The notes beneath the pieces are model-generated. The model saw only the letters and a list, made by a program, of their open reading frames with translations, was not told the origin of the DNA and did no database searches. The translations under genes and the position numbers were made by a program. Of a stretch of 64,000 nucleotides of DNA, positions 35,744 to 58,072 are shown in pieces. Within the stretch, counting starts at the first letter, position 1. Each line of letters starts with the position of its first letter. Source of the DNA: Fredinandcohnia onubensis (lineage in GTDB: Bacteria > Bacillota > Bacilli > Bacillales > Bacillaceae_L); NCBI RefSeq assembly GCF_031181385.1, contig NZ_JAPSKV010000001.1, positions 496,001 through 560,000 of the forward strand. Reading direction: 5' to 3'.

Positions 35744-36088
35744 ATGGGAATTAGTGTTTCGGCCGCAATTTCACAGGCAAACCAACTTCGCAATTATGCC
35801 ACACAGCTTCGCAATCTAAAAAGCTCTTTAAATGGGTTTCAAGGTAATATCAATTCAGCTTGGCAGGCAACCGAGGTTCAATATATCAACCAAGCGATCG
35901 CTGAGATTAACCGAGAATTAAATTCAATTGCCTCTAAACTAGACTCTGTTGCACCAGACATCATATCAGTTGCAAACCAAATCAAGCGAGAAGAAGAGGC
36001 AGCTGCTCGTGCAGCAGCGGAAGCGAGAAGAAAGGCTGAAGAAGAAGCACAAAAAAGAGCTGACACTAGAGCTCCTCATCTACGCTAA
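35744..36088 (+). CDS. WXG100-like protein with charged C-terminal tail
   Basis: 114 residues from ATG 35744 (AGGTG upstream); an in-frame ATG at 35675 has no site. Two predicted helices around W40 (SAWQATE, a W-x-A form of the WXG turn), then a long Glu/Arg/Ala helix (REEEAAARAAAEARRKAEEE) and a basic end. It opens the locus just before the ATPase. Similar YwqI-type proteins act as helical partners or substrates in Firmicutes type VII systems. Confidence 0.75.
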   Translation: MGISVSAAISQANQLRNYATQLRNLKSSLNGFQGNINSAWQATEVQYINQAIAEINRELNSIASKLDSVAPDIISVANQIKREEEAAARAAAEARRKAEEEAQKRADTRAPHLR

Positions 36089-36169
36089 GACTGCTAGAAT
36101 GAGATATTTTATAATCTTTGCTGACAACTATGAAAATAGACAACCGCAATTGTTAATACCTACGTTAGG

Positions 36170-36200
36170 AAAAAGACGTGATAGCCTTGCGCTTTTTTTA
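36170..36200 (+). terminator. possible terminator or attenuator before the EssC-like gene
   Basis: AAAAAG and CG pair with CG and CTTTTTT; the right arm is a seven-T run. The ATG at 36200 lies directly at its end, which argues against that codon as a start. Confidence 0.4.
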
Positions 36201-36217
36201 TGAAGGAGAGATTTGCT

Positions 36218-39200
36218 TTGATATTAACTCTATTTGATCGGGAAAAGGCTTTTACATATGTGCTGCCAGAACGCATCACGGGCCGCTATATTTTAACCTC
36301 TGAAGATGCTCACGGGGAACCCAAAGACTTAATCGCCATCGAGGCAGAGGATGGCAAATGGTTCTTGAAGTCGAACAAGTCGGCATTCCTGGCAAATGAC
36401 AAGCAAGAAATACTTGTTAAACAGGAAATTGAGCCATTTAAGACATACTCTATTTCTCGCAATAATGATGCATCTGCTCTCCTCTATGTGGAGCCACCGA
36501 CAAACGATCGAAATGAGTTTACAAAGCATGAGGTGACAGGAAGTAGTATTCGGGTTGGTCGCGGTAATGATTGCCACATCCGATTCTCGAATAAGCTTGT
36601 CTCTAGCTCCCACTGCGTGATTCAGTATGATGCACAGGGTCATGCGATCATCCGTGACAACAATAGCTCGAACGGTACATATGTCAACGGAGAGCGTGTG
36701 ACTGAAAAAGTTCTTTCAACCGGTGATGTCATCTACATCATGGGATTAAAAATCATCTACAATGGCAAGTTATTATCACTAAATAATCCGCATCAATTGG
36801 TATTTTTAGACCGCAATGCCTTTCGTCCGTTTGAGGTGCAAAAACCGATTATAGAAGAAGAGGAACCACTTGACGATTTCGATACCGAAGAATTAAATGA
36901 TGACCTCTTTTATCGTTCTCCACGTTTTAAGCGAGACATTAAGCGGACTGAAATCAGAATCGACCCACCACCATCGAAGCCGAACATCGATGAAACTCCA
37001 TTGATGTTTATCCTCGGACCTTCCATCACAATGGGGATGGCGTCCATGTCCATGGGGATATTTATGCTAAATAACGTATTGGCACGTGGCGAAAGTCTTA
37101 CATACGCGATGCCGACATTAATCATGTCATTTAGCATGTTGGTCGGAACGGTGCTGTGGCCGATTTTAACGAAGAAATATGAGAAGAAGCAGCGGATTAA
37201 GCAGGAAGGCAAACGCCAGGAAAAATACTCAAAATACATCGAAGAAATGGCGCAGGTGATTGAGGAAGAATGTCAACGTCAAAGCGAAATTCTTCATGAA
37301 AACCATGTGGCCCTGCAGAATTTAATTTCACGAATTACGATGCGAAAAAGAAATCTGTGGGAGCGTGCTATTGGTCAAGATGATTTCCTTAAGGTTCGCC
37401 TCGGAATCGGCGATCTTCCATTAAATGCAGAACTGAAATACCCTGAGAAAAAATTCACCCTAGAGGACGACAATCTCCAGGATGATCTTTATAAATTGGT
37501 TGAAACACCTCACATTTTAAAACAGGTGCCCGTAACCTTAAGTTTTGTTGAGGAGTATGTCAGTGGTGTGATTGGGCGCCGCAGTCGCGTACAGGATTTT
37601 GTAAAGGGACTTATTTTTCAATTAACGGCCCTACATAGTTATGACGAGCTGAAGCTTGTGTTTCTTTACGATAAAAATGAGGAAGAGTATTGGAAGTTTG
37701 CGAGATGGCTACCGCATGTGTGGGATGAAGCGATGCAGATTCGCTTTATCGCAACAGATGCGACAGAGGTAAAGGAGCTGTCTTCCTATTTTGAAAAGGA
37801 AATCGCCTACCGCGCAAGCCTTGATGAGGAACAGATAAAGGATCTTGACCAGCATTATTTAATTTTCTCGATGAGTAAGTCACTCGCGTCAAGGGCTGAG
37901 ATGATCAACCTCCTTTTAGAGGAAAATAAGGACATCGGCATTAGCCTCGTCACTTTATACGATGAGCTTAAGAATCTACCGAAGGAATGTACGATGGTTG
38001 TTGAGCTTGCGGATGACATGTCCAAAATTTATGACAAGGACGACATTTCCGGCTTGTACACAGCATTTGATGCGGAATTTTATGAGCGTGAGGATGCTGA
38101 AGAGGTTGCGATTCGCTTGGCCAATATTCAGCTTGCATCTTCTGTTGACGCATACACGTTACCAGACATGATCACGTTCTTAGAGATGTTTGGCGTAAGT
38201 AAAATCGAGCACTTGAACGCATTGACGCGCTGGAAGGAAAACAACCCAGTGCTCTCCATTGAAACGCCAATTGGGATTGACACAATGGGTGAGTCGTTCA
38301 AATTAGACCTTCATGAAAAATACCACGGTCCACATGGGCTGATTGCCGGTATGACGGGGTCTGGTAAGTCTGAGTTCATTATGACGTTCATTTTATCGCT
38401 TGCTGTGAACTATCACCCAGATGAGGTTGCCTTTATTTTAATCGACTACAAGGGTGGCGGAATGGCGAATGCCTTTTTAAATCTGCCGCATTTAGCTGGT
38501 ACGATTACAAACCTCGATGGGGCAGCCGTAAAACGTTCCTTAATTTCGATTCAAAGTGAGCTAAAGCGTCGCCAGTCCATTTTCAGTGAGACGAGTCGAC
38601 GTATGAATACAAGTAATATTGACATTTATAAATACCAAAAGCTGTATCGTGAAGGCTTAGTGAGTGAGCCACTTCAGCATTTATTCATGATTTCCGATGA
38701 GTTCGCCGAGTTGAAAACACAGCAACCTGAGTTCATGGAACAACTGGTGAGTGCGGCTCGTATCGGACGAAGCTTAGGAGTCCACTTGATTTTAGCCACA
38801 CAGAAGCCTTCTGGTGTCGTGGACGATCAAATTTGGAGTAACTCGAAATTCAGAATCAGTCTGAAGGTACAGGAAAAAGCCGATAGTATGGAGGTCATCA
38901 AGCGACCAGATGCTGCCGAGCTATCAACGACCGGTCGTTTTTACCTACAGGTTGGGTATAACGAGTTGTTCGAGCTTGGTCAATCGGCATGGGCAGGGGC
39001 ACCGTATTATCCATCCGATAAGATTGAAAAACGGGTAGATGAAAGCATCCGTGTCATTGACCACTTAGGTCGTGTCATCAAGAGTGCAAAAGTTGACCGA
39101 AGAACGATGGTGAAGAATCCACCGAAGCAAATTGATGAAGTCACAAAGTACTTAGAAACTCTAGCAAAACAGGAAAATATCAAGGTCAAGCAGCTATGGC

Positions 39201-40828
39201 TCGAGCCAATACCTGCAAGGATTTATTTAGATCAGTTAGTTGAAAAATACAGTGAAGAAACAACGAATCGCTTTGAACTGAACCCTGTAATTGGGGAATA
39301 TGATGACCCGGCGAACCAACGCCAAAATGTTATGAGACTACCAATCACTCAGGATGGCAATACTATCATCTATGGAGTCGCCGGTAGCGGTAAGACAACG
39401 TTCATTGCTTCGTTGATGTACTCGCTAATGGAATCCCATACGCCTGATGAGCTACATGCCTATTTACTAGATTTTAGCTCAGAGACGTTGAGTTGGTTCC
39501 GTGAAGCACCACATATCGGGGACGTTCTTTTATCCCATAATAGTGAGAAGATTGATAATCTCTTTAAAATGCTAAACAGCGAGATTGAGAAACGTAAAAA
39601 GCAGTTGTCCAATTATGGCGGAGATTTGCAGACATACAACCGCCTGTCTGAGGATGTACTGCCATCGATTGTGATTGTGATTCACAACTATGCCGCTTTT
39701 TCTGAAATGTACGAGTCACACGAAGAGGCGATTTCGTACCTCACCCGTGAAGGCACGAAGTACGGCATTTATTTTATCGTGACAGCAGCTCATACGGGTG
39801 CGGTTCGCTACCGATTGATGCAAAACTTCAAGCAGCTTTATGTGTTGCAGCTTAATGACACATCTGAATATTCAGCGGTACTCGGAAATGTGGACGGCGT
39901 CTTCCCATCGAAGCACAAAGGTCGAGGCATTTTCAAAGCAGACAGTGTGTATGAATTCCAAGTGGCCCTCATTACCGAGGGTGTTGAGGACATGTACCAA
40001 TATATCACGGACTACTGTCGTCGCCTGAGCGACAATTGGGGCAAAGGTGCTGCGAAACGAATTCCTGTCTTGCCTGAAAAAGTGGACATTGAGTATCTAC
40101 ATGATGAAATTCAGTACAACAAGTCAAGTAAACTACCAGTTGGTGTTGAAAAAGAGTCCCTTGCAATCACGTACTTTGATTTCGGTGATTCGCCTGTAAA
40201 TCTAATCCTTGGCAGTAGCAGCGATGCCTGCTCAGGTGTGATGCAGGGAATTTCAGAAATTGTTACTAAGAATGAGAAAAATGAAGTGGTCGTAATTGAC
40301 CCGAATGGGGAACTTATTGAAGTTGGCGGGAAGTATGTTTCTAGTCCAACGGAGATTGAGGAAACCATCGTAGAGTTGTTTAGCACATTGGTGTTCCGTA
40401 ACAACACAACGAAGGATGCGATTGCGGAAGGTGCGACACCACCAATATTCGAACCGCTCTACTGCATCGTTCATTCCTTCAACGACATGCTACTGATGTT
40501 ATCCGAGGATGGTCAGGATAAGCTGAAGGTATTCCTAGAACGAATCGACGGACTCAATGTCTTTATGATCATCTCAGACCGTGCCGATGCACTGAACTCT
40601 ATTGCATTCGAGCCTTGGTTTAAAAAGCAAGTCTCGCTCAGCGACGGCATCTGGGTTGGAAACGGAATTACCGATCAATTTTTATTAAAAGTTTCAAAAG
40701 TCACAAACAGCATGTACCAAGAGATTCCAGAAGACTTCGGATATGTGCTCACTAAGGGAAAACCAAAGTTAGTCAAGTTACTGACGGGATCGGCAGTTCG
40801 TGAAGAGGAGGCAGTTTTCAATGGATAA
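36218..40828 (+). CDS. essC: EssC-like FHA-FtsK/SpoIIIE ATPase of type VII secretion
   Basis: 1536 residues from TTG 36218, with AAGGAGAG eight bases upstream; ATG 36200 lies in a T-run without a site. Order: degenerate FHA-like region (1-90), canonical FHA (about 109-170: RVGRGNDCHIRFSNKLVSSSHC, SSNGTYVNG), linker, two membrane helices (about 262-286 and 292-314), then three P-loop ATPase modules. Module 1 has Walker A GMTGSGKS (711-718) and IDYKGGGMAN; module 2 GVAGSGKT (1053-1060); module 3 (near 1325) has LGSSSDACSG, lacking the GK[ST] motif. It powers export of WXG100/LXG proteins. A functional FHA should read phospho-threonine, matching the kinase downstream. Confidence 0.95.
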   Translation: MILTLFDREKAFTYVLPERITGRYILTSEDAHGEPKDLIAIEAEDGKWFLKSNKSAFLANDKQEILVKQEIEPFKTYSISRNNDASALLYVEPPTNDRNEFTKHEVTGSSIRVGRGNDCHIRFSNKLVSSSHCVIQYDAQGHAIIRDNNSSNGTYVNGERVTEKVLSTGDVIYIMGLKIIYNGKLLSLNNPHQLVFLDRNAFRPFEVQKPIIEEEEPLDDFDTEELNDDLFYRSPRFKRDIKRTEIRIDPPPSKPNIDETPLMFILGPSITMGMASMSMGIFMLNNVLARGESLTYAMPTLIMSFSMLVGTVLWPILTKKYEKKQRIKQEGKRQEKYSKYIEEMAQVIEEECQRQSEILHENHVALQNLISRITMRKRNLWERAIGQDDFLKVRLGIGDLPLNAELKYPEKKFTLEDDNLQDDLYKLVETPHILKQVPVTLSFVEEYVSGVIGRRSRVQDFVKGLIFQLTALHSYDELKLVFLYDKNEEEYWKFARWLPHVWDEAMQIRFIATDATEVKELSSYFEKEIAYRASLDEEQIKDLDQHYLIFSMSKSLASRAEMINLLLEENKDIGISLVTLYDELKNLPKECTMVVELADDMSKIYDKDDISGLYTAFDAEFYEREDAEEVAIRLANIQLASSVDAYTLPDMITFLEMFGVSKIEHLNALTRWKENNPVLSIETPIGIDTMGESFKLDLHEKYHGPHGLIAGMTGSGKSEFIMTFILSLAVNYHPDEVAFILIDYKGGGMANAFLNLPHLAGTITNLDGAAVKRSLISIQSELKRRQSIFSETSRRMNTSNIDIYKYQKLYREGLVSEPLQHLFMISDEFAELKTQQPEFMEQLVSAARIGRSLGVHLILATQKPSGVVDDQIWSNSKFRISLKVQEKADSMEVIKRPDAAELSTTGRFYLQVGYNELFELGQSAWAGAPYYPSDKIEKRVDESIRVIDHLGRVIKSAKVDRRTMVKNPPKQIDEVTKYLETLAKQENIKVKQLWLEPIPARIYLDQLVEKYSEETTNRFELNPVIGEYDDPANQRQNVMRLPITQDGNTIIYGVAGSGKTTFIASLMYSLMESHTPDELHAYLLDFSSETLSWFREAPHIGDVLLSHNSEKIDNLFKMLNSEIEKRKKQLSNYGGDLQTYNRLSEDVLPSIVIVIHNYAAFSEMYESHEEAISYLTREGTKYGIYFIVTAAHTGAVRYRLMQNFKQLYVLQLNDTSEYSAVLGNVDGVFPSKHKGRGIFKADSVYEFQVALITEGVEDMYQYITDYCRRLSDNWGKGAAKRIPVLPEKVDIEYLHDEIQYNKSSKLPVGVEKESLAITYFDFGDSPVNLILGSSSDACSGVMQGISEIVTKNEKNEVVVIDPNGELIEVGGKYVSSPTEIEETIVELFSTLVFRNNTTKDAIAEGATPPIFEPLYCIVHSFNDMLLMLSEDGQDKLKVFLERIDGLNVFMIISDRADALNSIAFEPWFKKQVSLSDGIWVGNGITDQFLLKVSKVTNSMYQEIPEDFGYVLTKGKPKLVKLLTGSAVREEEAVFNG

Positions 40829-41072
40829 AGTGTTGGTTGAAGTATTCATTCCAGCCGCCGGTGAATCCTACGATGTCTTCATCCCGGCCCAAAGCAAGCT
40901 CTATGAAGTAACCTTTTTACTCGCAAACACCATGACTGAGCTATCTAACGGCTACTTCGTCGCAACCGACACTACTGTGGTATGCGACCGCGAAACCGGT
41001 AAGATTTTTGACATTAACCAAACAGTGGAAGAATTAGGATTTATGAACGGGAAGAAATTGATGTTGGTTTAG
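40821..41072 (+). CDS. YukD/EsaB-like ubiquitin-fold protein
   Basis: 83 residues from ATG 40821, overlapping the ATPase gene by 8 bases, with GAGGAGG upstream in the ATPase coding end. Beta-grasp pattern: VLVEVFIPAAGESYDVFIP, a central helix (LYEVTFLLANTMTELSNG) and a final GKKLMLV strand. EsaB/YukD is a cytoplasmic component or regulator of Firmicutes type VII systems; the fold and tight coupling support the call. Confidence 0.82.
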   Translation: MDKVLVEVFIPAAGESYDVFIPAQSKLYEVTFLLANTMTELSNGYFVATDTTVVCDRETGKIFDINQTVEELGFMNGKKLMLV

Positions 41073-41078
41073 GTTTGT

Positions 41079-41199: not shown

Positions 41200-41276
41200 A
41201 CCGGCCTGGCCGGAAATGACGGCTTTGTCCGATATATTCAAAACTATGTCCGATATATCAAAAAAAGCTGGCCTGG

Positions 41277-41365: not shown

Positions 41366-42139
41366 ATGAGGTTACAAAAGAGGGTAGTCTTATTCCTTCT
41401 TCTATTCATTCTCATAATAGGAGGAACAGGGTGTATGAGTTCAAGTAGTGCGAGTACCGAGGAAAAAGCAATCCAGTATTTAGAAGAGAAGTATGACAAA
41501 GAGTTTGAGGTCATGTATGCCAAAGAGGGAAGTAAGCTTTTTGAAGATTTGTATGGTGGCGACCTCATTACTGTTCACCCTAAAGGTGAACCGGAAATCG
41601 TGTTTACTATTCAGGAGGATGGGGATGGGTTTGTTGAAACATATCTTCCTGCAAAATGGGCTCAGGAATTACAGGAAAAGTTAACAACTGACATTTCAAA
41701 AGAGTTACCGCCTGGAACTGAATTTAAACTTGTCTTAAACAAAACAAGATTCAAGGAAGATATGAGTGTTGAAGAATTGTTAGAAAAAAACAAAGCCATG
41801 GGTGTTGATTTAATAGTTGGAATAAAGACATCGGGTGAACCAGAAATAAGTCAATATAGTCAAGGCATCTATAATCTATACAATCTTTTAAAAGATTTAG
41901 GATTAAAGAATTATTTACTCTCAGTTGGATTTGTTGATGAGTCTGAAGACATTTCTGAGTTTATTACGACTTCTTACGTTAATAATATATCGTGGTCTAA
42001 TCTAGACGCTAATGTATACGGAGAATTGGGGATTGATGAAAGACATAATCCTAACAATCCTAGTTCCATTGTTGATTCTAGTTTGATTCTTCACGATGTT
42101 GATAATGTAAAAGAGCATTATATGCCTTTAGGAGAGTGA
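41366..42139 (+). CDS. lipoprotein, likely immunity protein of the lipase effector (paralogue 1)
   Basis: 257 residues. Lipoprotein signal with lipobox ending GGTGC, C23 lipidated, so it should sit on the outer face of the membrane. The mature part starts with a short helical stretch EEKAIQYLEEKYDKEFEV and GSKLFEDLYGGD, and ends DVNVYGELGIDER-like strands. It is clearly homologous along its length to the lipoprotein at 43550, on the other side of the lipase gene. In the S. aureus TslA system, surface lipoproteins (TilA) neutralise a type VII lipase; this layout suggests the same role. No named domain recognised. Confidence 0.75.
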   Translation: MRLQKRVVLFLLLFILIIGGTGCMSSSSASTEEKAIQYLEEKYDKEFEVMYAKEGSKLFEDLYGGDLITVHPKGEPEIVFTIQEDGDGFVETYLPAKWAQELQEKLTTDISKELPPGTEFKLVLNKTRFKEDMSVEELLEKNKAMGVDLIVGIKTSGEPEISQYSQGIYNLYNLLKDLGLKNYLLSVGFVDESEDISEFITTSYVNNISWSNLDANVYGELGIDERHNPNNPSSIVDSSLILHDVDNVKEHYMPLGE

Positions 42140-42143
42140 TCAC

Positions 42144-43547
42144 ATGTCTCTCACTGAGCTTAATGATAAAGAAAAATATCTATTGTTAGAGCTTTCTTAC
42201 CTTGATGTAAATAGCAAAAGGCCCATTAGTGAAAAGAATCCAATGACTATTTCGGAAATGCTGGACACCATCAACCCCGATAAATTAGGTGAAAAAGCAC
42301 AAACGAAATATTATGAGATTTATGACTATATTCATTCTGAGGAAAATGATTTTTCACCTCTTAAAGAAATAAAGTTAGTTGGATACCAAAATCATAATCC
42401 TAATGGTGGTAATAACACGGAGGGAGAATCCTACTCAGGTTTCGTGGGCTATGCATTCACCGACAATGACGGGAACGGTACAGCTGTTTATCGTGGCAGT
42501 GAAGATTTAACAAATGTCGCTCACATCGCAACAGACTGGGTATCCAATGTTGAGGCTGGTATTGGAGTAACGATCCAGCAGCAAAGGGAAGCAAATGAAT
42601 TTTATGAACGATACATTAAAGGTCTGAATGGGGAGCAGTATGTATTTGGCCACTCGAAAGGTGGAAATTTGGCGGAATACGTACTTGTCAATAATCTAGA
42701 GGATGAAAAACTAACATCTTACATTGTGAACGGAGCCCCTTTATATTATTGGACTCTAACACAGGAACAAAGAGATGCATTAAGGGATCGAAATACGTTT
42801 ATTGTACACGAGGGTGACTTCGTTTCATCTCTTGGGTACGCACCTTATGTAGATAAAACAGTTAAATTAAATAGCAATGAAGAGGGCCTGATGTATGCAC
42901 ATGGCTTGGAAAGTGTTGATTTTACTCCAGGCGGGGACTTTAAAAATGCATCTGATGGAGCATCACTCGTACGAGATATTGGTAATCCAATTGCAGCAGC
43001 TATCGTTTTAGCAGCCTCACTTCATCCAAAAGTGTTGGCATATCGAGCAGCAGCAGCGATTCGCGATGCCACTTTATACATCCTAGAAGCTGCACAAAGA
43101 GGACTTGAAAAAGCAGTTAACTGGGTGAAAGAACAAGCAACAAAATTCATTGCAAAAGTAAAAGAACTAACACAACAGGTGAAGGACGAAATTAACCAAT
43201 TCATCACGAATGTGGCAACGAAAGCGGCAATGCTTTTTGTAAAAGTAGTTGCAAAGCTCGGGGGCTATTTCCCGGTAGAGCCATACCTGAAAGTCAATGT
43301 AGCAAGGCTCTACTACTATGCACAACGACTGGAAAGTATCAAACGCCGAGTGAATGCACTTAATAATCAGATTGACTCTTTATACTGGGAGGTTGACCTT
43401 TTAGATATCCGTCATGTGTTGAGCGCCGATATTTTAACGTCATTCTCATACAGGCTCAATCAAAACATTAACTATCTAAATACGGCTGCCCGATTGCTAG
43501 ATGCGAACGAAACAAAGCTAGTTGGAAAGGCTAAGATTATTCAATAG
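42144..43547 (+). CDS. type VII lipase effector with N-terminal toxin domain (TslA-like)
   Basis: 467 residues. Residues 1-300 form a DUF2974/Mbeg1-type alpha/beta hydrolase: nucleophile S171 in FGHSKGGNLAEY, with D225 (HEGDFVSS) and H253 (MYAHGLESV) fitting the triad. Residues 300-467 are long amphipathic helices (VNWVKEQATKFIAKVKELTQ ... RRVNALNNQIDSLYWEVDL) that resemble an LXG targeting domain placed at the C terminus. No Sec signal. TslA of S. aureus has this reversed order. Four bases separate it from the upstream lipoprotein gene and two from the downstream one. Probably a phospholipase exported by this locus and aimed at rival cells. Confidence 0.82.
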   Translation: MSLTELNDKEKYLLLELSYLDVNSKRPISEKNPMTISEMLDTINPDKLGEKAQTKYYEIYDYIHSEENDFSPLKEIKLVGYQNHNPNGGNNTEGESYSGFVGYAFTDNDGNGTAVYRGSEDLTNVAHIATDWVSNVEAGIGVTIQQQREANEFYERYIKGLNGEQYVFGHSKGGNLAEYVLVNNLEDEKLTSYIVNGAPLYYWTLTQEQRDALRDRNTFIVHEGDFVSSLGYAPYVDKTVKLNSNEEGLMYAHGLESVDFTPGGDFKNASDGASLVRDIGNPIAAAIVLAASLHPKVLAYRAAAAIRDATLYILEAAQRGLEKAVNWVKEQATKFIAKVKELTQQVKDEINQFITNVATKAAMLFVKVVAKLGGYFPVEPYLKVNVARLYYYAQRLESIKRRVNALNNQIDSLYWEVDLLDIRHVLSADILTSFSYRLNQNINYLNTAARLLDANETKLVGKAKIIQ

Positions 43548-43549
43548 CT

Positions 43550-44352: not shown

Positions 44353-44544
44353 ATGAAACCTCATGTTCGACGAAAGATTAATAGCATTATTTATGAGATT
44401 AATGCCATCTCCAGGGAACTCGATGAAATTTCAAATGGTCTTAACCGCGAATTCAAAGGGATTGGCTCTACCAAGAGTGCATCAAGCTTGCAAAGTGCAG
44501 CTGACAAATACCGTAGAGTCGGCAATGACCTGAGAAGGATTTGA
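44353..44544 (+). CDS. 63-residue helical partner protein of the effector region
   Basis: Strong AAAGGAGGT upstream of the ATG. Two short helices (INSIIYEINAISRELDEISNGL and SASSLQSAADKYRRVGNDLRRI) joined by a Gly-Ser turn, the look of small WXG100-like partners encoded beside LXG or TslA-type effectors. No tryptophan turn. A targeting-partner role is inferred. Confidence 0.65.
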   Translation: MKPHVRRKINSIIYEINAISRELDEISNGLNREFKGIGSTKSASSLQSAADKYRRVGNDLRRI

Positions 44545-50201: not shown

Positions 50202-53200
50202 TAGCAATGATTTCAAAAAGCTACCGAAAAAACAAATCGGTACTCTGGTTACCGATCGCATTTGTTTTGGTGCTGTCGGTGGTATTCTTTAGCCTGAACG
50301 TATCATCTCAGGTTGAAACAAAACAGTATATAAAATTTAACAATGAACAATGGGAAATCGGCCAGGGTTTTTCAAATGAATGGTACATAAATGGAGATAC
50401 CCTTCAGTTCCAGGTTGATTTAAGTGAGGACTATGAGAATTATCTGAAGCCAAAAGAGACACCGGAGGAGCCGGAAAATCCTGAAGGATCTGAAACAGCG
50501 GGGGAAACGACCCCTGAAAATACAGCGACAACTCCAGTTGCAGGTGAGGAACCTGAAGGCGGGTTACCTTTTGACGTAACACTATCTAAGGGACCTGGAG
50601 AAGCAACTATAACTCCAATTACAGATGGCGGGTTCAAAGGTCTGTATAAAGTAACCATCTCTGGTGTTAATAAAGATGGTGTAATCCCGGTGACGATCAA
50701 CTTTGAAAAAGACACATGGGTGAATGAACCACCAACTAGCCAAACAACATTTACCGTTCAAAAAGACACACAGGCTCCAGTCGTTAATCTGTCTGGTCCC
50801 AAGGATGGAGAATTTTATCGGAAAGATGTTGACCTAGGTATCGAAGTAGATGAAGAACACTTTTTACAAGACAAAGTGACTATTTCAATTAAAAAGGACG
50901 GTTCGGATTTCGATTTACAAAATCCTGTTCAATGGGATGGAAAAAGAACGTCCATTAGATTTGATCAAGTTGGCCATTATGAAGTAACGGTAACTGCTAC
51001 TGATAAAGCAGGTAACGTGAGCGATGCAAAGTCCATTTCATTTGCCAACGTAAAAACAGATGCGATTTTGTACATTAAAGATAAAACAGAAAATAATTTT
51101 TATAAAGATAACGTAAATATCGTAGTTGAAAATCCACTTTCTATCCACTCTGCAAAGCTTACTTATGTCAAGGATGGCGGCGAGCCACAGACTGTGGATA
51201 TGGAAATCAAAAATACTCTGTTTTCAAAGACAGCAACATACTCCCTATCAGAAGAAGGAACGTATGCATTTAGTGCAAAGATAACAGATTATTGGAGACC
51301 AACTGGGTTTGAACTTGGAACCTATGAAAATATCATTATCGACAAGACATCACCTGAACTAAAAATAACTGGAGTTACAAATGGTGGTCAATATACAGAA
51401 TCTAAGGATTTAGTTGTTTCAGCAACAGACACATTTTTGGATGAAAACAAATCGGTGTTAAAGCTAACGAAAAACGGAAAAGCCGAAACCTTCACCGGAA
51501 AAGATGCTCTTGAAAAACGCAACTTAACAGATGGAGTATACGCTGTTGAACTAAGTGTGTTTGACAAAGCTGGGAATGAAACGAAAAACCCAGCAATCAA
51601 CTTTACAATTGATACTCAGAAGCCAGAGTTAGAGATTTCTGGAGTTGAAAATGGGAAGTTTTATCCTGAAGATCAAACCGTTCATTTTTCAGTAAAAGAC
51701 TTAACACTTGATTTGGCGAAAACAACTCTTGTCGTAAAGCACAACGATACCAACTACGCAGAAGAAATCAAATTCAAACAGAACGGTACAGTGGCAGAAG
51801 CAAGTCATACGTTTAAAACTGAAGGTAAATACACAATTGAGTTAAACGCGACTGACCAACTTGGAAATGCTGCAGACAAAATTACGAGAACATTCACACT
51901 CGACAAAACGAAGCCAACTGTTTCTCTTACTGGTGCTGAGAATAATAAGAAGTACAACCGCCAAGTAGACGTGGAAATTGTTGGAGAAGACACAAACAAA
52001 GATGATAGCAAGACCATTTTAACAGTAACAAAAGATGGGGAATCAGAAACGTTTGAAGGTAAAAACGCACATGAGAAACATAGCTTTACACAAGAAGGTG
52101 TCTATGAAATCAATGTAGACTACTTTGATAAAGCCAGAAACAAGGCTGATTTTTCAACGATTACATTTGTTATCGACAACTCTAAGCCAGAGGTTGATAT
52201 CACAGGTGTAACTGAAAATGAATTTGCGAATACAGACAAAGAAGTCAAGTTTACGGTTGAGGATTCACATATCGACCTAGACAACATTGAACTGACGATT
52301 ACGAAGGATGGCAAAGCTTATCCGACGGACGCCATCAAATTCAAGAAACAAAGGAACCGATATGCTGAGGCGGAGCATACTTTTACTGACGATGGTGTTT
52401 ATGTTGTAAAACTAAAGTCGACTGACGAAGCAGGAAATATTTCAGCTGAAAAACAAATTCGTTTTACCATCGATAAAATCAAACCTGAGATCGTTGTGAC
52501 AAACATCGGTGAAGATGGCAGATACAATGATGATCGTGAAGTAACGATCACGGTAACTGATCTAAATATGGGTGAGTCAAATGCAACAGTAAAGTACAAT
52601 GGAGAGTCATTTGAGATTGACCCACTCGTGCTCGAAGGTAAAATGGCAACAACTAAACACACCTTCACTGAAGAAGGAGTTTACGAGCTGCAAGTCATTT
52701 CAACGGATAAAGCCGGAAACGATACTACTAAATACATTAAATTCACGGTCGATAAAACAGGACCTGCGATTAAGTATTCAATTAAAGATGGTACGTATTT
52801 TAATGATGAAAAAGTGAACCTAACTGTTACTGTCGATGACTACACACCGTTCGTTCCTGAAATCACACTAAAAAATGGGGAAAAAGTCATCAAGGTTCCA
52901 ACAGACGGATGGATGAAAAAAATCGTCTGGTTAATCACTCAAGAACTAACTGTTGAACTTGAAGATGAAGGTGTTTATTCAGCTCAAGTAAAAGCGAAAG
53001 ACTACTTTGGCGCTGAAAGCACAGAGGACCTTGGCTTTACGATTGACCGCACCTCACCTGAAATCCAAATCAGCGGGAACATCCCGAATGGTGGATTTGT
53101 CCAAGGTGACAACGAGTTAACCGTAGACATCAATGACCTACATTTTGACGAAAGTAAAAATGTAGTCCTAGTAAACGGTAAACCGGTTAAGGATGCCCAG

Positions 53201-55603
53201 TGGAAAGAAACAGCAACTGGTTATCAGTTCAAGCAAAGCTACCCAGAGGACGGAGAATATGAAGTAACCGTTCGTTCTGAAGACTTTGCAGGTAACAAAG
53301 CAACGGAGAAAAAACACAATTTCACAGTGGACAACGTAAAACCAGTTATCACAATTGAAAATGTAAAAGACGGAACATTTTACGATAAAAAGCAAACAGC
53401 TACGATCAAGGTAAACGAGCTGAACTTTGCAAACAATGAAGTAGAAGTCAAAGTCAACAATAAGCCGTACGAGTGGAAAAACCAAGGCGTTGAATCAAGT
53501 CTTGTGATTCCGTTTAAGGAAGATGGCGACTATGTGATTAAGGTGTCTTCGACGGATGCAGCTGGAAACATTGCTGACGCAAAAGAAGTGAAGTTCACGG
53601 TAGATGAGAGCTTCCCGACGCTGAAAATCACTGGTGTCGAGCATATGACAAACTACAATATTAGCAAGCCAGTTACTTTCGAAGTAACCGATGCGAACAT
53701 CGATCAAACTTCATTACGTGTGACGAAGAACGGCAAGGCATATGAAGTTGGTCCGCTCAACCAAACGAGAACAAAAGAGAGCTTACAACACAATTTTGCA
53801 GAAGAAGGCAGCTATGTACTTTACTTCAATGCAACGGATAAATCAGGTAACAAAACAACGCATGAAGAGATTGCGTTTATCATCGACAAAACAAACCCAG
53901 TTGTAAAAATTGACGGTGTCGACCACCAGTCCTTCAATCCAACTGGCAAGCGCGTAACTGTTTCTGTTGATGAATTGAACTTCGGTACGAATTACGTTGT
54001 GCTTTCTGTAACAAAGGATGGCAAGGTATTTAATATTGGAACTTGGAAAAACAACAACAAGCTTTCAAGCTTAGGCTACAATTTTAATGATGATGGCTTG
54101 TACACCATTGCAATTAGCGCTGAAGATAAGGCGGGTAATGGTCCAATAACAGCGAACAAGACTTTCACAATTGATAAGACAAAGCCAGCAATCGAAATTA
54201 CAGGTGTTGAAAATGCAGCACATTATAATGTTGATAAGCCAGTGAGTGTTGAAATTCGTGATGTGAACTTAGATGTGAACCGCATCACCGTGACACGTAA
54301 TGGTAGAGGGTATAATGCTGGTGGATTTGGAGTAGCGAATCAAACTGCTCGACTTAGCCACAACTTTAGCCAAGAAGGTGACTATGCGATCAACGTAGAA
54401 GCGATTGACAAAGCGGGTAACCAATTCAGCAGACAGATTGCTTTTACAATTGATAAAACAGCTCCAGTCATTACACCGAAATTTAAAGGTCAAAGCCGTG
54501 TAATCAAGAATGGCGAATATATTAATGAAGTATTCACACCTGAATTTACGCTTGACCAAGGTGAGGACACTATTGTTTCAGTAACCATGAATGGTTCAAA
54601 TGTAACAGGTCGAATTCCAACGGCTACATTGGAAATGAAGTACGATTTCAGTGTGCTTGCACGAGATAAAGCAGGAAACGAGTCAACAATTGATATTAAT
54701 TTTATTCTTGATACGACAAAGCCGAACTTGAATATCACAGGTGTTATTGATGGATTCTTTAATAACAATCAAATGCCAACTGTGACTTATTCGGATCGTT
54801 ACCTTGATTCAAGTCGTTCAAGTGTCACATTAAATGGCCGCCCGTTTGTAAATGGGGTGCAGCTAAGTGAAGAGGGAGATTACATTTTAAAAGCTGAAAT
54901 CTATGATTTAGCCAACAATGTTTCATCCCGAACAATTGTGTTTACGATTGATAAAACTGCACCAGTTATTAAATTTAAAGAAGCTATTTCTGAAGGGTAT
55001 TTCAAGGAAAGCTTACTTCCTGAATTGCTAATTGAGGATTTAAATGCTTATGACATCATCTCACAAACCTTGAACGGTCAGCCTTATAATTTTGGTGACC
55101 CAATTGAGGAAGAAGGAAAGCACGTGCTCTTCTTCGAGGTAAAGGACAAAGCAGGAAATATCCAACAGCTAAGTGTTGAATTTATTATTGATAAAACTCC
55201 TCCGAAAGTCGTTGTCGATGGAGTCAAGAAAAACGAAACATATCGTGACCCTGTCACACTCTCAATCAGCCTTGATAATCCTAGTGATACACTCAAGTCT
55301 GTCATGATTAATGGAGAGCTTTTCAATGGTGACGTAAAAGACGTAAACGGAACAAAAGTTATTTCCGTAACACTTTCTGATATCAACAAGTACAAGGTAG
55401 AAGTATTAGCCGAAGACGTAGCGGGTAATGAAATGAACGAAGTAGTTGAATTCGAAATCGTTGAAAAAAGCGTACTCGTAAAGTTCTATGAAAACAAACC
55501 ATTATTTGCGGGCGCAATGGTAGGTCTTGTCGGTATTGCAGCAGCAGGTGCTGTCGCTCTACGCAGAACCATCATCCGCAGAAAAGACGCGAAAGATATG
55601 TAA
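50198..55603 (+). CDS. giant bitopic protein with about 17 Ig-like repeats
   Basis: 1801 residues from GTG 50198 (GGAG nine bases upstream, 4-base overlap with the previous gene). N-terminal membrane helix (about 18-38), an acidic Pro/Glu/Thr stretch near 85-115, then about 17 tandem Ig-like domains, each closing with F-T-I-D-K-T-x-P and containing D-K-A-G-N. A C-terminal membrane helix (ENKPLFAGAMVGLVGIAAAG) and basic tail (RRTIIRRKDAKDM) anchor the other end. It could span the cell wall as a stalk, the place taken by EsaA/YueB in canonical systems. Repeats are diverged, so this is old expansion rather than recent copying. Followed by a strong terminator. Confidence 0.85.
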   Translation: MIAMISKSYRKNKSVLWLPIAFVLVLSVVFFSLNVSSQVETKQYIKFNNEQWEIGQGFSNEWYINGDTLQFQVDLSEDYENYLKPKETPEEPENPEGSETAGETTPENTATTPVAGEEPEGGLPFDVTLSKGPGEATITPITDGGFKGLYKVTISGVNKDGVIPVTINFEKDTWVNEPPTSQTTFTVQKDTQAPVVNLSGPKDGEFYRKDVDLGIEVDEEHFLQDKVTISIKKDGSDFDLQNPVQWDGKRTSIRFDQVGHYEVTVTATDKAGNVSDAKSISFANVKTDAILYIKDKTENNFYKDNVNIVVENPLSIHSAKLTYVKDGGEPQTVDMEIKNTLFSKTATYSLSEEGTYAFSAKITDYWRPTGFELGTYENIIIDKTSPELKITGVTNGGQYTESKDLVVSATDTFLDENKSVLKLTKNGKAETFTGKDALEKRNLTDGVYAVELSVFDKAGNETKNPAINFTIDTQKPELEISGVENGKFYPEDQTVHFSVKDLTLDLAKTTLVVKHNDTNYAEEIKFKQNGTVAEASHTFKTEGKYTIELNATDQLGNAADKITRTFTLDKTKPTVSLTGAENNKKYNRQVDVEIVGEDTNKDDSKTILTVTKDGESETFEGKNAHEKHSFTQEGVYEINVDYFDKARNKADFSTITFVIDNSKPEVDITGVTENEFANTDKEVKFTVEDSHIDLDNIELTITKDGKAYPTDAIKFKKQRNRYAEAEHTFTDDGVYVVKLKSTDEAGNISAEKQIRFTIDKIKPEIVVTNIGEDGRYNDDREVTITVTDLNMGESNATVKYNGESFEIDPLVLEGKMATTKHTFTEEGVYELQVISTDKAGNDTTKYIKFTVDKTGPAIKYSIKDGTYFNDEKVNLTVTVDDYTPFVPEITLKNGEKVIKVPTDGWMKKIVWLITQELTVELEDEGVYSAQVKAKDYFGAESTEDLGFTIDRTSPEIQISGNIPNGGFVQGDNELTVDINDLHFDESKNVVLVNGKPVKDAQWKETATGYQFKQSYPEDGEYEVTVRSEDFAGNKATEKKHNFTVDNVKPVITIENVKDGTFYDKKQTATIKVNELNFANNEVEVKVNNKPYEWKNQGVESSLVIPFKEDGDYVIKVSSTDAAGNIADAKEVKFTVDESFPTLKITGVEHMTNYNISKPVTFEVTDANIDQTSLRVTKNGKAYEVGPLNQTRTKESLQHNFAEEGSYVLYFNATDKSGNKTTHEEIAFIIDKTNPVVKIDGVDHQSFNPTGKRVTVSVDELNFGTNYVVLSVTKDGKVFNIGTWKNNNKLSSLGYNFNDDGLYTIAISAEDKAGNGPITANKTFTIDKTKPAIEITGVENAAHYNVDKPVSVEIRDVNLDVNRITVTRNGRGYNAGGFGVANQTARLSHNFSQEGDYAINVEAIDKAGNQFSRQIAFTIDKTAPVITPKFKGQSRVIKNGEYINEVFTPEFTLDQGEDTIVSVTMNGSNVTGRIPTATLEMKYDFSVLARDKAGNESTIDINFILDTTKPNLNITGVIDGFFNNNQMPTVTYSDRYLDSSRSSVTLNGRPFVNGVQLSEEGDYILKAEIYDLANNVSSRTIVFTIDKTAPVIKFKEAISEGYFKESLLPELLIEDLNAYDIISQTLNGQPYNFGDPIEEEGKHVLFFEVKDKAGNIQQLSVEFIIDKTPPKVVVDGVKKNETYRDPVTLSISLDNPSDTLKSVMINGELFNGDVKDVNGTKVISVTLSDINKYKVEVLAEDVAGNEMNEVVEFEIVEKSVLVKFYENKPLFAGAMVGLVGIAAAGAVALRRTIIRRKDAKDM

Positions 55604-55612
55604 CAAAAATGT

Positions 55613-55646
55613 AGGCATTCGCTGTTTTGCGGATGCCTGTTTTTAA
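55613..55646 (+). terminator. terminator after the Ig-repeat gene
   Basis: AGGCATTCGC (55613-55622) pairs with GCGGATGCCT (55629-55638) over TGTTTT, followed by GTTTTTAAAA. Confidence 0.88.
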
Positions 55647-55681
55647 AAAAGTAGTTTGTTAGAATAAAAGGAGGCATCGTT

Positions 55682-56881
55682 TTGTCTAGAATCACGATCA
55701 AGCCGAATCAAGTTATCGGAATCAGTCCCATGGTAGGGTCTGTAGCCTCAAAACTTTCACAGGTTGAGGGAGGCGTGGCTTCTGTCAGAAATTCCATTGA
55801 TTATCGAATCTTGGCTAGAACCTCCATCCGGCCGCAACTAACAGAGGTAACTTCTTCAATTGATCAATTGGAAGAAAAAGTAAGGAAACTACAGTCCTTT
55901 TTAAATTTAGCTGTTACTCGTTATTCGTCAACAGAGCGATATTTAAATAGTTCGTTCATGGCGATGGAGGCAGTTCGGGGTATGGCCCCGGCAAATCAGC
56001 CAGCAAATGGTAAAAATGTTGAATCCTCAAGCAAGGATACATCTTCACTAGCACATAAAATCCTTTCTTACTTTGACTCCGTTAATAAAGGGTTAAGTGC
56101 AGGGGACGTTGCATTAGTAGGGTCACAGTTATTGTCTGTGGCAACCTCTTCTTTTTTAATGCGCAATTTAAAAATAAACTATATTGGCGGAAAGCCAACT
56201 ATAGGGCAAAGATTTCGCGGTCAATATAAATTCACTGTAACAGCAAAGCCTTCCTGGACTAGTCGAGGTGGATACAGCTCGAGAATAGCAAGACTTATCC
56301 ATAATTTTTCAAGGTCCACGCCGACAAATGCAGTTACAAGAGCCATGCATTCATTTGTTAGCTCCTATAATGGGCCATCTGCCCTATTAAAGCATGCAGC
56401 AGGTTTTTCGAAAAATGTAAATGCAGCCATGCACGGAACAACACTAATGGGACGCTTCCATCAGAGGATTACAATTGGCTCAAAAGAAGTAGTACAAAAC
56501 TTGGCGAAAGCAAGAGGATTTACCGCTGTCGCGAAACGAATCCCACTTCTATCAGGTTTTATCTCTGTAGGGGCTAACGCCACAGAGTTTGTAGACCCGA
56601 AAAATGCCAATTTATCAACAGGTGAAAAGATTGGTAGATTCAGTGCAGGTGTAGGTGCCGACATTGCGGCAATCGCTGGCGGTGCTAAGGTTGGTGCAAT
56701 GATTGGTAGCTTCGGTGGCCCAGTAGGGGTCGTTGTCGGTGGAGCTGTTGGTGGACTTGTTGGAGGTGTTTTAAGTTCAAAATATGGAAATCAGATTAAA
56801 GATGTTGGTCAAAAAATTGGTGGCGCAATTGAAAACGCGGGAAAATCGGTCTTCAATTCAGTTAAAAGTTGGTTTAACTAA
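55682..56881 (+). CDS. probable type VII effector with glycine-zipper C terminus
   Basis: 399 residues from TTG 55682 (AAAGGAGG upstream). Residues 1-105 are helical and LXG/WXG-like (IDYRILARTSIRPQL, QLEEKVRKLQSFLNLAVTRY), fitting an export-targeting domain; no Sec signal. The C-terminal part (about 325-385) is a glycine-zipper membrane segment (GPVGVVVGGAVGGLVGGVL), as in pore-forming toxins and in the membrane-depolarising effector TspA of S. aureus. A small polytopic membrane protein follows 24 bases on, a typical immunity arrangement. Not matched to a named family. Confidence 0.65.
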   Translation: MSRITIKPNQVIGISPMVGSVASKLSQVEGGVASVRNSIDYRILARTSIRPQLTEVTSSIDQLEEKVRKLQSFLNLAVTRYSSTERYLNSSFMAMEAVRGMAPANQPANGKNVESSSKDTSSLAHKILSYFDSVNKGLSAGDVALVGSQLLSVATSSFLMRNLKINYIGGKPTIGQRFRGQYKFTVTAKPSWTSRGGYSSRIARLIHNFSRSTPTNAVTRAMHSFVSSYNGPSALLKHAAGFSKNVNAAMHGTTLMGRFHQRITIGSKEVVQNLAKARGFTAVAKRIPLLSGFISVGANATEFVDPKNANLSTGEKIGRFSAGVGADIAAIAGGAKVGAMIGSFGGPVGVVVGGAVGGLVGGVLSSKYGNQIKDVGQKIGGAIENAGKSVFNSVKSWFN

Positions 56882-56905
56882 ATCGAAATTGATAGGATGA
56901 AGAAA

Positions 56906-57247
56906 ATGAATAATGCTGCAGGAATGATTGATACAATCACACTTGTACTCGGCGCTTGGTTAGCACTTCAGTTTACCATCAGCCTGGTTACAGTTTTACT
57001 AGGAAATGTTATGGTCGAATACGTAGAATTAGGGATTTTCAGAAATACAAACAACCCCTTTCTCAAATTCTTTACCTTCATTACTCTATTTGTATTCGGT
57101 CTAGGTCCTTTTATCTTTGAAAAACTAAGCAAGTTCTCCTGGCTTGTGAGGAGACTCCTCATGCTTGTCATCACACTCGTCATGGGAATTCTATTCATGA
57201 TTATCTATTACATTATAAAAGTGTCATTGCAGGCGGTGTTTTTATAA
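56906..57247 (+). CDS. small three-helix membrane protein, possible immunity protein
   Basis: 113 residues from ATG 56906, with AGGAT six bases upstream; ATG 56897 has no room for a site. Three membrane helices (about 8-32, 52-72, 78-110). Directly after the glycine-zipper protein. TspA-type depolarising effectors are neutralised by polytopic membrane proteins (TsaI), which this resembles only in layout. Family unknown. Confidence 0.6.
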   Translation: MNNAAGMIDTITLVLGAWLALQFTISLVTVLLGNVMVEYVELGIFRNTNNPFLKFFTFITLFVFGLGPFIFEKLSKFSWLVRRLLMLVITLVMGILFMIIYYIIKVSLQAVFL

Positions 57248-57268
57248 AAAACAAAGGAGGTACAAGTC

Positions 57269-58072
57269 ATGAACCATGCTTTAACATGCACAACGGAGGA
57301 ATTGGCATTATTGGTAACAGAGTGTGGATATCCAGCTGTTGCGAAAGGTATCGCAGAGGCTTCGTACGGCGAAAAGTCTCCTGCAGAATGGGATGCCATC
57401 ATGGAATCCACAATCCACCAGCTGGTAATCAAATCTCTGTGGGATCCTGATAAAAACGGTGAGGATGAGCATCCTCTTAGCGAAGAAATGCAGATTTTTA
57501 TCAAGCAATATGTAGAATCCAAATGGATGATCCGTTGCTCGAATATGATGGGTCGAAACGTATTAATGATCCATCATTTTGAGGAAGACATTTGGCTTGC
57601 CCATGTCATCGCAGAAGACATCATGCATGAATTTGCATTATTATCAAATGATGAAATTCCAACAGTGATTAAAGACTTTTATTCTTTCGAAGGTACAAAA
57701 ACAGAGGAAACTCAGGAGTTCTTCCTCACAGATAATCTGTTCGATTGGTTAAGTGACCAGTCAAAAACAGAGAAGGTCCGGAAGAAAGCAAAGTTTACAC
57801 CAACAGAGGAGCAGAGCTTCAATCTATTCATCAAGGACCTAGAAGAGCACGAGTGGTCACTTTATAATATTTCAAATTTCGAAATCCCGAACATTGAAGG
57901 TGATTTTCTCCTTGCAAATATCGTCTTCTTTTTACCATCAACAAAAGGAATGTGGATTGTGGAATATAAAGAAGATGCTAAAAATCCAGTCCACATTAAA
58001 CTAAATACGTACGAAGAATGGCACGAAATGCTCGATGCTGTAGGCACCGTGGCAGCCGCAATAGAAGTATAA
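57269..58072 (+). CDS. hypothetical protein, possible EspG-like secretion chaperone
   Basis: 267 residues, soluble, acidic, no signal. It opens LTCTTEELALLVTECGYP, which recalls the start of EspG-type chaperones (a helix after T-x-x-E-L), followed by mixed alpha/beta segments (MIRCSNMMGRNVLMIHHF, FLLANIVFFLPSTKGMWIVEY). EspG proteins bind ESX substrates and keep them soluble. The similarity is only by eye, so the role is tentative. AAAGGAGGT upstream; last gene of the locus, closed by a strong terminator. Confidence 0.5.
   Translation: MNHALTCTTEELALLVTECGYPAVAKGIAEASYGEKSPAEWDAIMESTIHQLVIKSLWDPDKNGEDEHPLSEEMQIFIKQYVESKWMIRCSNMMGRNVLMIHHFEEDIWLAHVIAEDIMHEFALLSNDEIPTVIKDFYSFEGTKTEETQEFFLTDNLFDWLSDQSKTEKVRKKAKFTPTEEQSFNLFIKDLEEHEWSLYNISNFEIPNIEGDFLLANIVFFLPSTKGMWIVEYKEDAKNPVHIKLNTYEEWHEMLDAVGTVAAAIEV

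What the first reader, a model, noticed from the sequence alone, without database searches (positions are those of the whole stretch)
35744..58072. Type VII secretion locus wired to a phospho-threonine signalling set, without EsaA/EssA/EssB
Seen: an EssC-like FHA-FtsK ATPase, YukD-like protein, three WXG100-type proteins, then FHA adaptor, PP2C phosphatase, Ser/Thr kinase with TPRs, a Thr-ladder membrane protein and a giant Ig-repeat protein. Known: canonical Firmicutes systems need EsaA/YueB, EssA and EssB/YukC. None is recognisable here. Inference: the FHA adaptor and Ig stalk replace the missing parts and secretion is switched by phosphorylation.
Basis: partly seen in the sequence, partly recalled or inferred. 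Interest (0 to 1): 0.8.

Follow-up and report, generated by a model that had tools for sequence, protein, structure and literature searches.

The report
Phospho-threonine-wired type VII secretion locus (T7SSe)
A Bacillus-like bacterium carries a recently described kind of protein-export machine in which a kinase, a phosphatase and phosphate-reading proteins sit around the export motor, and a repeated threonine tag in two of its parts looks like the switch; related switch genes also turn up beside a quite different machine, the Tad pilus.

Summary
Window 35744-58072 is a type VII secretion locus; EsaA, EssA and EssB profiles find nothing in its genome. It is not an unknown system: it matches T7SSe of Garrett, Higginson and Palmer 2024 (PMC11217815), except TseK, which I could not find.

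Not found in print: (1) The tail of TseH is a ladder of T-x-Phi-L, 366 copies against about 26 expected in 57 distinct TseH. It is Thr-specific and Leu+3-specific (Ser version 0.8-fold, other aliphatics at +3 1.0-fold). The motif also lies in the linker before the FHA domain of 77 of 85 J proteins. (2) DUF6382 of TseJ is predicted to have a protein-kinase fold. (3) J-type genes also sit in Tad pilus loci, in 11 of 13 cases without EssC over the cut-off. Six loci carry an EssB/YukC homologue; in three others a T7SSe-type phosphatase-kinase-H-I cassette stands there instead, by at least two captures.

Best reading: a kinase-written, FHA-read, phosphatase-erased assembly switch. No biochemistry was done.

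The parts
35744..36088 (+). WXG100-like helical protein upstream of the ATPase (start taken at ATG 35744)
   Evidence: weak PF06013/PF25547; present in part of the relatives, in some on the other strand
36200..40828 (+). TseC: FHA-FtsK ATPase (EssC family)
   Evidence: TIGR03928 1130 bits; FHA pocket residues R121, S135, H138, N158, T160 kept in 39-41 of 42 distinct homologues
40821..41072 (+). TseB: YukD/EsaB ubiquitin-like protein
   Evidence: PF08817 E 0.0035, below cut-off; conserved position
41366..42139 (+). lipoprotein-like, candidate TilA-like immunity protein
   Evidence: hydrophobic N-terminus then GTGC, a poor lipobox, by eye; next to the lipase in relatives
42144..43547 (+). reverse lipase: N-terminal Mbeg1-like lipase, C-terminal helical domain; candidate secreted antibacterial effector
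   Evidence: PF11187 E 2e-7, NF047388 E 6e-11, below cut-off
43550..44317 (+). second lipoprotein-like paralogue, candidate immunity protein
   Evidence: hydrophobic N-terminus then IVGC by eye; HMM of the pair
44353..44544 (+). 63-aa helical protein, candidate Lap/TlaA-like targeting partner
   Evidence: conserved next to the lipase
44654..44956 (+). TseA: WXG100
   Evidence: PF06013 E 2e-14
44997..45299 (+). TseA2: WXG100
   Evidence: PF06013 E 3e-12
45408..46664 (+). TseJ: DUF6382 (predicted pseudokinase fold), linker with EGTTVL and EGTTAL, FHA
46829..47596 (+). TseF: PP2C/PPM phosphatase
   Evidence: PF13672 E 5e-14
47628..49568 (+). TseD: Ser/Thr kinase, TM near residue 280, extracytoplasmic TPR superhelix
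   Evidence: PF00069 E 3e-52; TM; catalytic residues kept; model pLDDT 90.8, TPR hits
49632..50201 (+). TseH: N-terminal TM, tail with nine T-x-Phi-L, C-terminal DVMIVHT motif
50198..55603 (+). TseI: giant Ig-repeat stalk, N-terminal signal-like and C-terminal hydrophobic segments
   Evidence: PF19077 E 1e-71, 13 stretches; hydropathy
55682..56881 (+). candidate second effector: WXG/LXG-like N-terminus, glycine zipper
   Evidence: NF035934 E 0.005, PF13488 E 0.002, both below cut-off
56897..57247 (+). 116-aa membrane protein of the second cargo cassette
   Evidence: four hydrophobic segments; found with its neighbours in four further loci, two of them the same contig
57269..58072 (+). 267-aa protein of the second cargo cassette, no family

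Best explanation
The locus is a T7SSe. Working model: the transmembrane kinase TseD senses the envelope through its outer TPR superhelix and phosphorylates threonines of T-x-Phi-L motifs. These form a ladder in the cytoplasmic tail of the membrane protein TseH and one or more copies in the TseJ linker. The FHA domains of the ATPase TseC and of TseJ read the phosphothreonine, so a multivalent platform gathers or releases the ATPase at the membrane under the Ig stalk TseI. The phosphatase TseF resets it. In most TseJ the motif lies about 25-55 residues before its own FHA, as in GarA/OdhI, so TseJ may also close on itself. Cargo: a TslA-like lipase with its partners and a second LXG-like protein. 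Shown by calls: gene content, conservation, mostly intact active sites, the Thr- and Leu-specific motif, the predicted kinase fold of DUF6382. Inferred: topology of the tail, every phosphorylation, binding and secretion step, and whether phosphorylation turns the system on or off.
For: All T7SSe parts but TseK. The operon recurs in most T7SSe-type J loci examined. Ladder: 366 observed against 25.9 expected in 57 distinct TseH, 56 of 57 with at least one; thinned to 41 rows, 236 against 16.3. S-x-Phi-L 0.8-fold and T-x-Phi-[IVMF] 1.0-fold, so Thr and Leu+3 are selected, as an FHA reader would. J linkers: 137 against 17.1, 77 of 85. Controls on other proteins of the loci: TseC 1.34, TseD 1.25, TseF 1.78, TseI 0.68, TseB 0.39, lipase 0.73, Tad YukC 0.25-fold. 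FHA pocket kept in TseC. TseD catalytic loop in 55 of 57 and DFG in 56 of 57. GarA/OdhI precedent: phosphorylated ETTS motif in the N-terminal region of FHA proteins and a TPR kinase, PknG (PMC8546545, passages).
Against: No phosphorylation, binding or secretion was measured. A Thr-preferring kinase could also give a Thr-only ladder. TseH has one rung or none in some clostridial rows (L120, L123, L127 one; L128 none). Eight of 85 J linkers lack the motif, and in a few of the 77 the only copy is far from the FHA (L107 160 residues, L142 76). In 29 of the 85 J rows the FHA start was not matched by the pattern and was set at 85 residues from the C-terminus. TseF is itself at 1.78-fold. The strict PP2C DGMGG pattern fits only 37 of 69 TseF, though D-N at the end is kept in 69 of 69; the N-[GKR]-[TS] step of the J FHA fits 68 of 83, and its S is often G in the window's clade. 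Shuffles keep composition, not ancestry. In clostridial loci order and neighbours vary, and EssC passes its cut-off in only 7 of 14 such or related genomes checked, of which no completeness was given.
Confidence: 0.65

Rival explanations
1. Same T7SSe, but the phospho-module controls only assembly of the envelope stalk (TseI) or cell-wall status, and the ATPase runs constitutively; the ladder recruits TseJ alone.
For: J-F-F-D-H-I sets exist in Tad loci of two genomes with no EssC over the cut-off (G074, G108), so the set can be kept without TseC.
Against: TseC keeps a pThr pocket in 39-41 of 42 homologues, which a non-reading FHA would not need; T7SSb FHA domains have lost it according to PMC11217815.
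Confidence: 0.2
2. The FHA adaptor TseJ is the hidden EssB: its DUF6382 pseudokinase docks on the TseC FHA as YukC docks on YukB, without any phosphorylation.
For: DUF6382 model (pLDDT 87.7) gives only protein kinases in the 50 PDB matches shown; weak collinear profile match to YukC (probability 33.6%); in 396 genomes of the order TseH and canonical YukC share no genome, 0 of 24 against 105 of 372. In T7SSb the YukC pseudokinase contacts the YukB FHA (passages of PMC13037476).
Against: TseJ has no TM or outer domain; Tad loci carry both a DUF6382-FHA protein and a separate YukC, so they are not alternatives there; EssB structures are not among the 50 matches shown and TM-scores are low (0.38-0.55); 4 of 10 genera with strong TseH also have species with canonical YukC, so the exclusion is by genome, not by genus.
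Confidence: 0.2
3. The Thr-rich repeats in TseH are a low-complexity spacer or a glycosylation or localisation signal, not FHA ligands.
For: Repeat number varies from 0 to 16.
Against: Ser is not enriched and Leu at +3 is required; the same motif lies in the linker before the FHA of TseJ; kinase and phosphatase genes are neighbours.
Confidence: 0.1

Closest known systems
T7SSe (Garrett, Higginson and Palmer 2024, PMC11217815)
   Same: TseA, A2, B, C with FHA and pThr residues, kinase D, PPM F, one-TM H, giant Ig I, DUF6382-FHA J; reverse lipase also reported at a Neobacillus T7SSe locus
   Different: TseK not found here; the Thr ladder, the J linker motif, the kinase fold of DUF6382 and the Tad-linked J sets are not in the sections and passages I read (the supplement could not be read here)
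T7SSb (EsaA, EssA, EssB, EssC, EsaB)
   Same: EssC-family ATPase over the NCBIfam cut-off, YukD-like protein, WXG100, TslA-like lipase cassette
   Different: no EsaA, EssA or EssB match in the genome; FHA of the ATPase keeps its pThr pocket
T7SSj and T7SSd
   Same: share D and I (and H in d) by PMC11217815
   Different: j lacks H, d lacks B and has no F or J listed; no sequence labelled T7SSd was examined here
GarA/OdhI-PknG switch
   Same: ETT-type phosphorylated motif in an FHA protein, TPR-bearing kinase
   Different: metabolic enzyme inhibitor, not secretion; no ladder protein
T6SS Thr-phosphorylation pathway (PpkA-Fha-PppA names recalled; Agrobacterium case cited in PMC11217815)
   Same: membrane kinase and FHA protein control a secretion machine
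   Different: unrelated machine
Myxococcus Kil Tad-like apparatus (PMC8460266, passages)
   Same: Tad-type machine with several FHA proteins, its ATPase fused to an FHA domain; signalling cascade suggested there
   Different: no DUF6382, TseH, TseI or YukC mentioned in the passages seen

Membership tests
T7SSe | TsxC ATPase with N-terminal FHA keeping the pThr consensus | tested here: met
T7SSe | two WXG100 proteins TseA and TseA2 | tested here: met
   44654 and 44997
T7SSe | ubiquitin-like TseB | tested here: met
   PF08817 E 0.0035, below cut-off, plus conserved position
T7SSe | membrane Ser/Thr kinase TseD and PPM phosphatase TseF | tested here: met
T7SSe | TseH, single TM with short unstructured cytoplasmic part | tested here: met
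   one TM by hydropathy, alignment; disorder judged by eye
T7SSe | TseI, large Ig protein with signal peptide and C-terminal TM | tested here: met
T7SSe | TseJ, DUF6382 plus FHA | tested here: met
T7SSe | TseK, second one-TM small protein | tested here: inconclusive
   no second such ORF in the gaps; whether the ladder protein is the paper's H or K cannot be told without its supplement
T7SSe | TsxC falls in the TseC clade of the published tree | not tested
   reference sequences were not at hand
T7SSb | EssB/YukC | tested here: not met
   PF10140 0 matches in the own genome
T7SSb | EssA and EsaA | tested here: not met
   PF10661 and TIGR03929 0 matches in the own genome
T7SSb | EssC equivalog | tested here: met
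   TIGR03928 1130 bits

The most novel reading that the evidence does not exclude
Phosphatase-kinase-TseH-TseI is a portable phospho-threonine and Ig-stalk chassis that plugs into unrelated envelope machines. It drives T7SSe, and it has been captured at least twice by Bacillaceae-type Tad pili, where it took the place of a kinase plus an EssB/YukC homologue. Both machines then share one Thr-only, Leu+3 FHA code, and EssB is one of two interchangeable ways to link an envelope machine to an FHA reader.
Probability: 0.5. Interest if true: 0.8.

Novelty: new member of a known kind. Interest (0 to 1): 0.58.

Why it matters
T7SSe was defined by gene neighbourhood and ATPase phylogeny, and how such systems run without EssB or EsaA is open. 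A Thr-only ligand ladder shared by two components gives concrete phosphosites, readers and an eraser to test. The Tad loci offer a natural swap: the same position holds either a kinase plus EssB-like protein or the phosphatase-kinase-ladder-stalk cassette, which bears on what EssB does and ties type VII secretion to Tad (type IVc) pili.

Tried and rejected
Canonical T7SSb hidden elsewhere in the genome: no match. DUF6382 as an EssB relative by sequence: no PDB chain matched the profile at E up to 10, and hhalign is weak. TseD outer domain as an EssB-like ectodomain: the 50 Foldseek matches shown are other proteins, mostly TPR or similar helical repeats, no EssB. TseK: not found. A plain FHA pattern over TseC was too strict (2 of 44) and was replaced by an alignment. 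A genus-level Fisher test (p 0.016) is withdrawn: it took the TseH and YukC genera as disjoint, but 4 of the 10 genera with strong TseH (g14, g30, g55, g68) also hold species with canonical YukC. In the second kinase tree I left out six loci with long-branch or broken rows (L108, L113, L128, L132, L135, L138) and, by score and length limits, the short kinases of the other Tad loci; the first tree holds them.
Full report
WHAT IS THERE. The locus lies on contig C5 of a 4.26-Mb genome of the same genus as genomes whose contigs match, by length and identity, the records of Fredinandcohnia onubensis, Bacillus timonensis and B. sinesaloumensis. Upstream is a galactose operon with a LacI-type regulator (by eye). 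The order is WXG100-like, TseC, TseB, lipoprotein-like, lipase, lipoprotein-like, small helical protein, TseA, TseA2, TseJ, TseF, TseD, TseH, TseI, then a second cargo cassette. Three mechanical ORF starts look too early: 35744, 40821 and TTG 49632 fit the relatives better, the last with a ribosome-site-like stretch.

NO CANONICAL T7SSb. EssB, EssA and EsaA profiles found nothing in the genome, while each rang over its cut-off in the B. subtilis control. FtsK/SpoIIIE found two other ATPases and this one. In 396 genomes of the order, TseH is in 25, one of them weak. YukC is over its cut-off in 113; I take 105 of these as canonical, leaving out eight whose best match has 41-87 bits. None of the 24 strong TseH genomes has canonical YukC (Fisher p 0.0006 by genome). 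These genomes are related, so the p-value flatters the result, and by genus there is no exclusion: 4 of the 10 strong TseH genera also hold species with canonical YukC. An earlier genus-level p-value assumed otherwise and is withdrawn.

CO-OCCURRENCE. DUF6382 is in 8 of 17 genomes of the family, 8 of 9 in the genus, and in 37 of 396 of the order, 34 over the cut-off. I fetched 20-kb stretches around 21 J genes of the T7SSe type (L036-L055, L056). All nine core genes lie together in 18, and the lipase, lipoprotein and small-partner genes are in 19. The three others: L053 lacks most of the set nearby; L054 has its ATPase further along the contig (L077); L055 has TseH upstream of the ATPase. Of 65 named loci found with TseJ, 30 have all nine and 46 the run J-F-D-H-I; the rest include short contigs, Tad loci and clostridial variants. 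In 14 genomes behind such loci EssC is over its cut-off in 7; the 7 without it are two Tad-type loci (L121, L131), a decayed locus (L113) and four clostridial records (L120, L125, L130, L135), for which no completeness was given. Some named loci are the same genomes as unnamed ones, so motif counts below use distinct sequences only.

THE PUBLISHED KIND. PMC11217815 (abstract; sections 9, 12, 13, 14, 15 and 16 whole; the first of three parts of section 6; passages) defines T7SSe as TseA, A2, B, C, D, F, H, I, J, K in Bacillota, notes the intact pThr consensus in TseC, suggests control by Thr phosphorylation, compares the Ig protein (of T7SSd) to EsaA, and reports a reverse lipase at a Neobacillus T7SSe locus. 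The locus here meets every listed part that I could test except TseK, which I did not find. Searches for DUF6382 and for T7SSe each returned only this paper.

CARGO. The lipase has an Mbeg1-like N-terminal domain (PF11187) and a below-cut-off match to NF047388 (SA1320 family). TslA of S. aureus is a reverse lipase neutralised by the lipoprotein TilA and needing two small helical partners (PMC10730906, passages). The two lipoprotein-like genes and the 63-aa protein fit those roles by analogy. A second cassette (55682-58072) lies upstream of TseC in L043, L095, L096 and L102 (L043 and L096 are the same contig), so it changes place relative to the core.

THE THREONINE LADDER. TseH has one N-terminal TM, then repeats such as DETTLL, EETSLL, GETAIL, then a conserved D-x-M-x-V-H-T end. 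In 57 distinct TseH the motif T-x-[LIVMF]-L occurs 366 times against 25.9 expected from shuffled tails; 56 of 57 have at least one. Serine in place of threonine is not enriched (12 against 15.0), nor I, V, M or F at +3 (36 against 37.1), and with an acidic residue before the Thr the enrichment is 42-fold (210 against 5.0). After thinning to 41 rows the picture is the same. FHA domains read phosphothreonine rather than phosphoserine, with a strong say at +3 (recalled). Selection for Thr and Leu+3 is what an FHA reader would impose; a Thr-preferring kinase is not excluded. TseJ carries the same motif, in the window's order relatives mostly GTTVLG, usually 25-55 residues before its FHA: 137 against 17.1 anywhere in the linker, in 77 of 85 J proteins, Tad-type ones included. 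Columns T296, T297, V298 and L299 are invariant in 11 diverse TseJ. In the window the second copy is EGTTAL, which the pattern does not count. GarA and OdhI carry a phosphorylated ETTS motif and an FHA, and their kinase PknG has TPRs (PMC8546545, passages).

WRITER, READERS, ERASER. TseD keeps the catalytic loop in 55 of 57 and DFG in 56 of 57; its outer part is predicted as a TPR superhelix (pLDDT 90.8). The TseC FHA keeps R121 in 39, S135 in 39, H138 in 41 and N158 in 40 of 42. The J FHA keeps [ILV]-G-[RK] in 81, [SG]-[RK]-x-[HL] in 82 and the N-[GKR]-[TS] step in 68 of 83. TseF keeps the final D-N in 69 of 69, but a strict DGMGG pattern only in 37 of 69.

DUF6382. A model of TseJ 1-196 from 55 sequences has pLDDT 87.7 and pTM 0.85. 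The 50 PDB matches shown are all protein kinases (E 4e-6 to 1e-4, but TM-scores only 0.38-0.55 and mostly large rmsd). In the family alignment only P127 is invariant, so no catalytic residue is kept throughout and it is a likely pseudokinase. A specific link to EssB is not shown: hhalign probability 33.6%, no sequence match to any PDB chain.

TAD PILI. In 13 further genomes with DUF6382 (L057-L060, L063-L071) J is longer, 469-575 aa, with two hydrophobic segments in 11 of 13 (one in L064, none over the threshold in L059). It lies next to a prepilin peptidase gene in 11 of 13, with lipoprotein genes between in L057 and L063, and Tad genes precede it; in L071 only the peptidase was matched by my Tad HMMs. 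Those HMMs come from L057 and L058, where Pfam gives T2SSE, T2SSF, Peptidase_A24, TadE and, for the TadG-like gene, DUF5702; one TadE-like gene has no family. Eleven of these 13 genomes have no EssC over the cut-off (G215 is only 80% complete, and G162 has a partial 82-bit match); G066 and G051 have one elsewhere. Ten loci (call them Tad-3) have J with some of phosphatase, short kinase and a further protein. In six of the ten the further protein is a YukC/EssB homologue (PF10140 E 6e-24 to 1e-27 in the four given to hmmscan; all six by genome search). In three loci (L057, L058, L063) J and the first phosphatase are nearest to the Tad-3 type, but the second phosphatase is nearest to T7SSe (44-53% against 29-33%), and kinase, TseH with ladder and TseI follow. 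The kinase tree puts L057 with L063, and L058 alone, at two starred places inside the T7SSe clade; none of 200 bootstrap trees joins all three (one search agrees for the kinase domain). So the phosphatase-kinase-H-I cassette has most simply moved from T7SSe to Tad loci twice, standing where kinase and YukC stand in others. The reverse direction, and loss of YukC before the capture, are not excluded, and three loci are few. Searches (listings and starts of abstracts) gave no paper that I could see on such Bacillota Tad sets. There are precedents for the separate ideas: TraF of a T4SS is an EssB-like pseudokinase (PMC13037476, passages), and the Myxococcus Kil Tad-like apparatus has several FHA proteins and an FHA on its ATPase, with a signalling role suggested (PMC8460266, passages).

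VERDICT. The locus is a new member of T7SSe. The mechanism offered is inferred from anatomy and from the motif statistics, at about 0.65.

Noticed in passing
L057 1-19 kb, L058, L063: Tad pilus loci with a T7SSe-type phosphatase-kinase-TseH-TseI cassette; no EssC over the cut-off in two of the three genomes (G074, G108), while G066 has a T7SS core 0.35 Mb away.
   Followed up: partly
L059 6888-8177, L060 13259-14767, L064, L065, L067, L070: YukC/EssB homologue as the last gene of a J-(phosphatase)-kinase set behind Tad pilus genes.
   Followed up: partly
G385, G195, G172: Further low-scoring YukC-like genes (41-77 bits) whose neighbourhoods were not looked at.
   Followed up: no
L075 2906-10602, L076 9615-19445: T7SS cores (ATPase, YukD-like, two WXG100, LXG-like) without YukC and without kinase-TseH-TseI in the stretch; L076 has a short J-like gene and a phosphatase upstream of the ATPase gene.
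   Followed up: partly
L055 and G396:C1:3816207-3816662: TseH lies upstream of TseC rather than downstream of TseJ: rearranged locus. In G084 TseH lies about 0.26 Mb from TseJ.
   Followed up: no
window 58206-61961: Calcineurin-like phosphoesterase with lamin-tail and Ig domains just downstream of the locus.
   Followed up: no
L123, L126, L129, L136 about 13.4-14.0 kb: Clostridial loci have a 145-164 aa multi-TM protein between TseH and TseI that has no counterpart at that place in the window.
   Followed up: no
L069 12-19 kb, L057, L058, L063: Tad loci hold runs of lipoprotein genes (one, in L057, tested: DUF4352), in L069 with a repeated J fragment and phosphatase copies.
   Followed up: no
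L091: Record titled Chryseobacterium sp. ISL-80 carries a Mesobacillus-like T7SSe locus: probably a mislabelled or mixed genome.
   Followed up: no
L113: Kinase gene split into two pieces in Neobacillus sp. PS3-12, in a genome with no EssC over the cut-off: probably a decaying locus.
   Followed up: no
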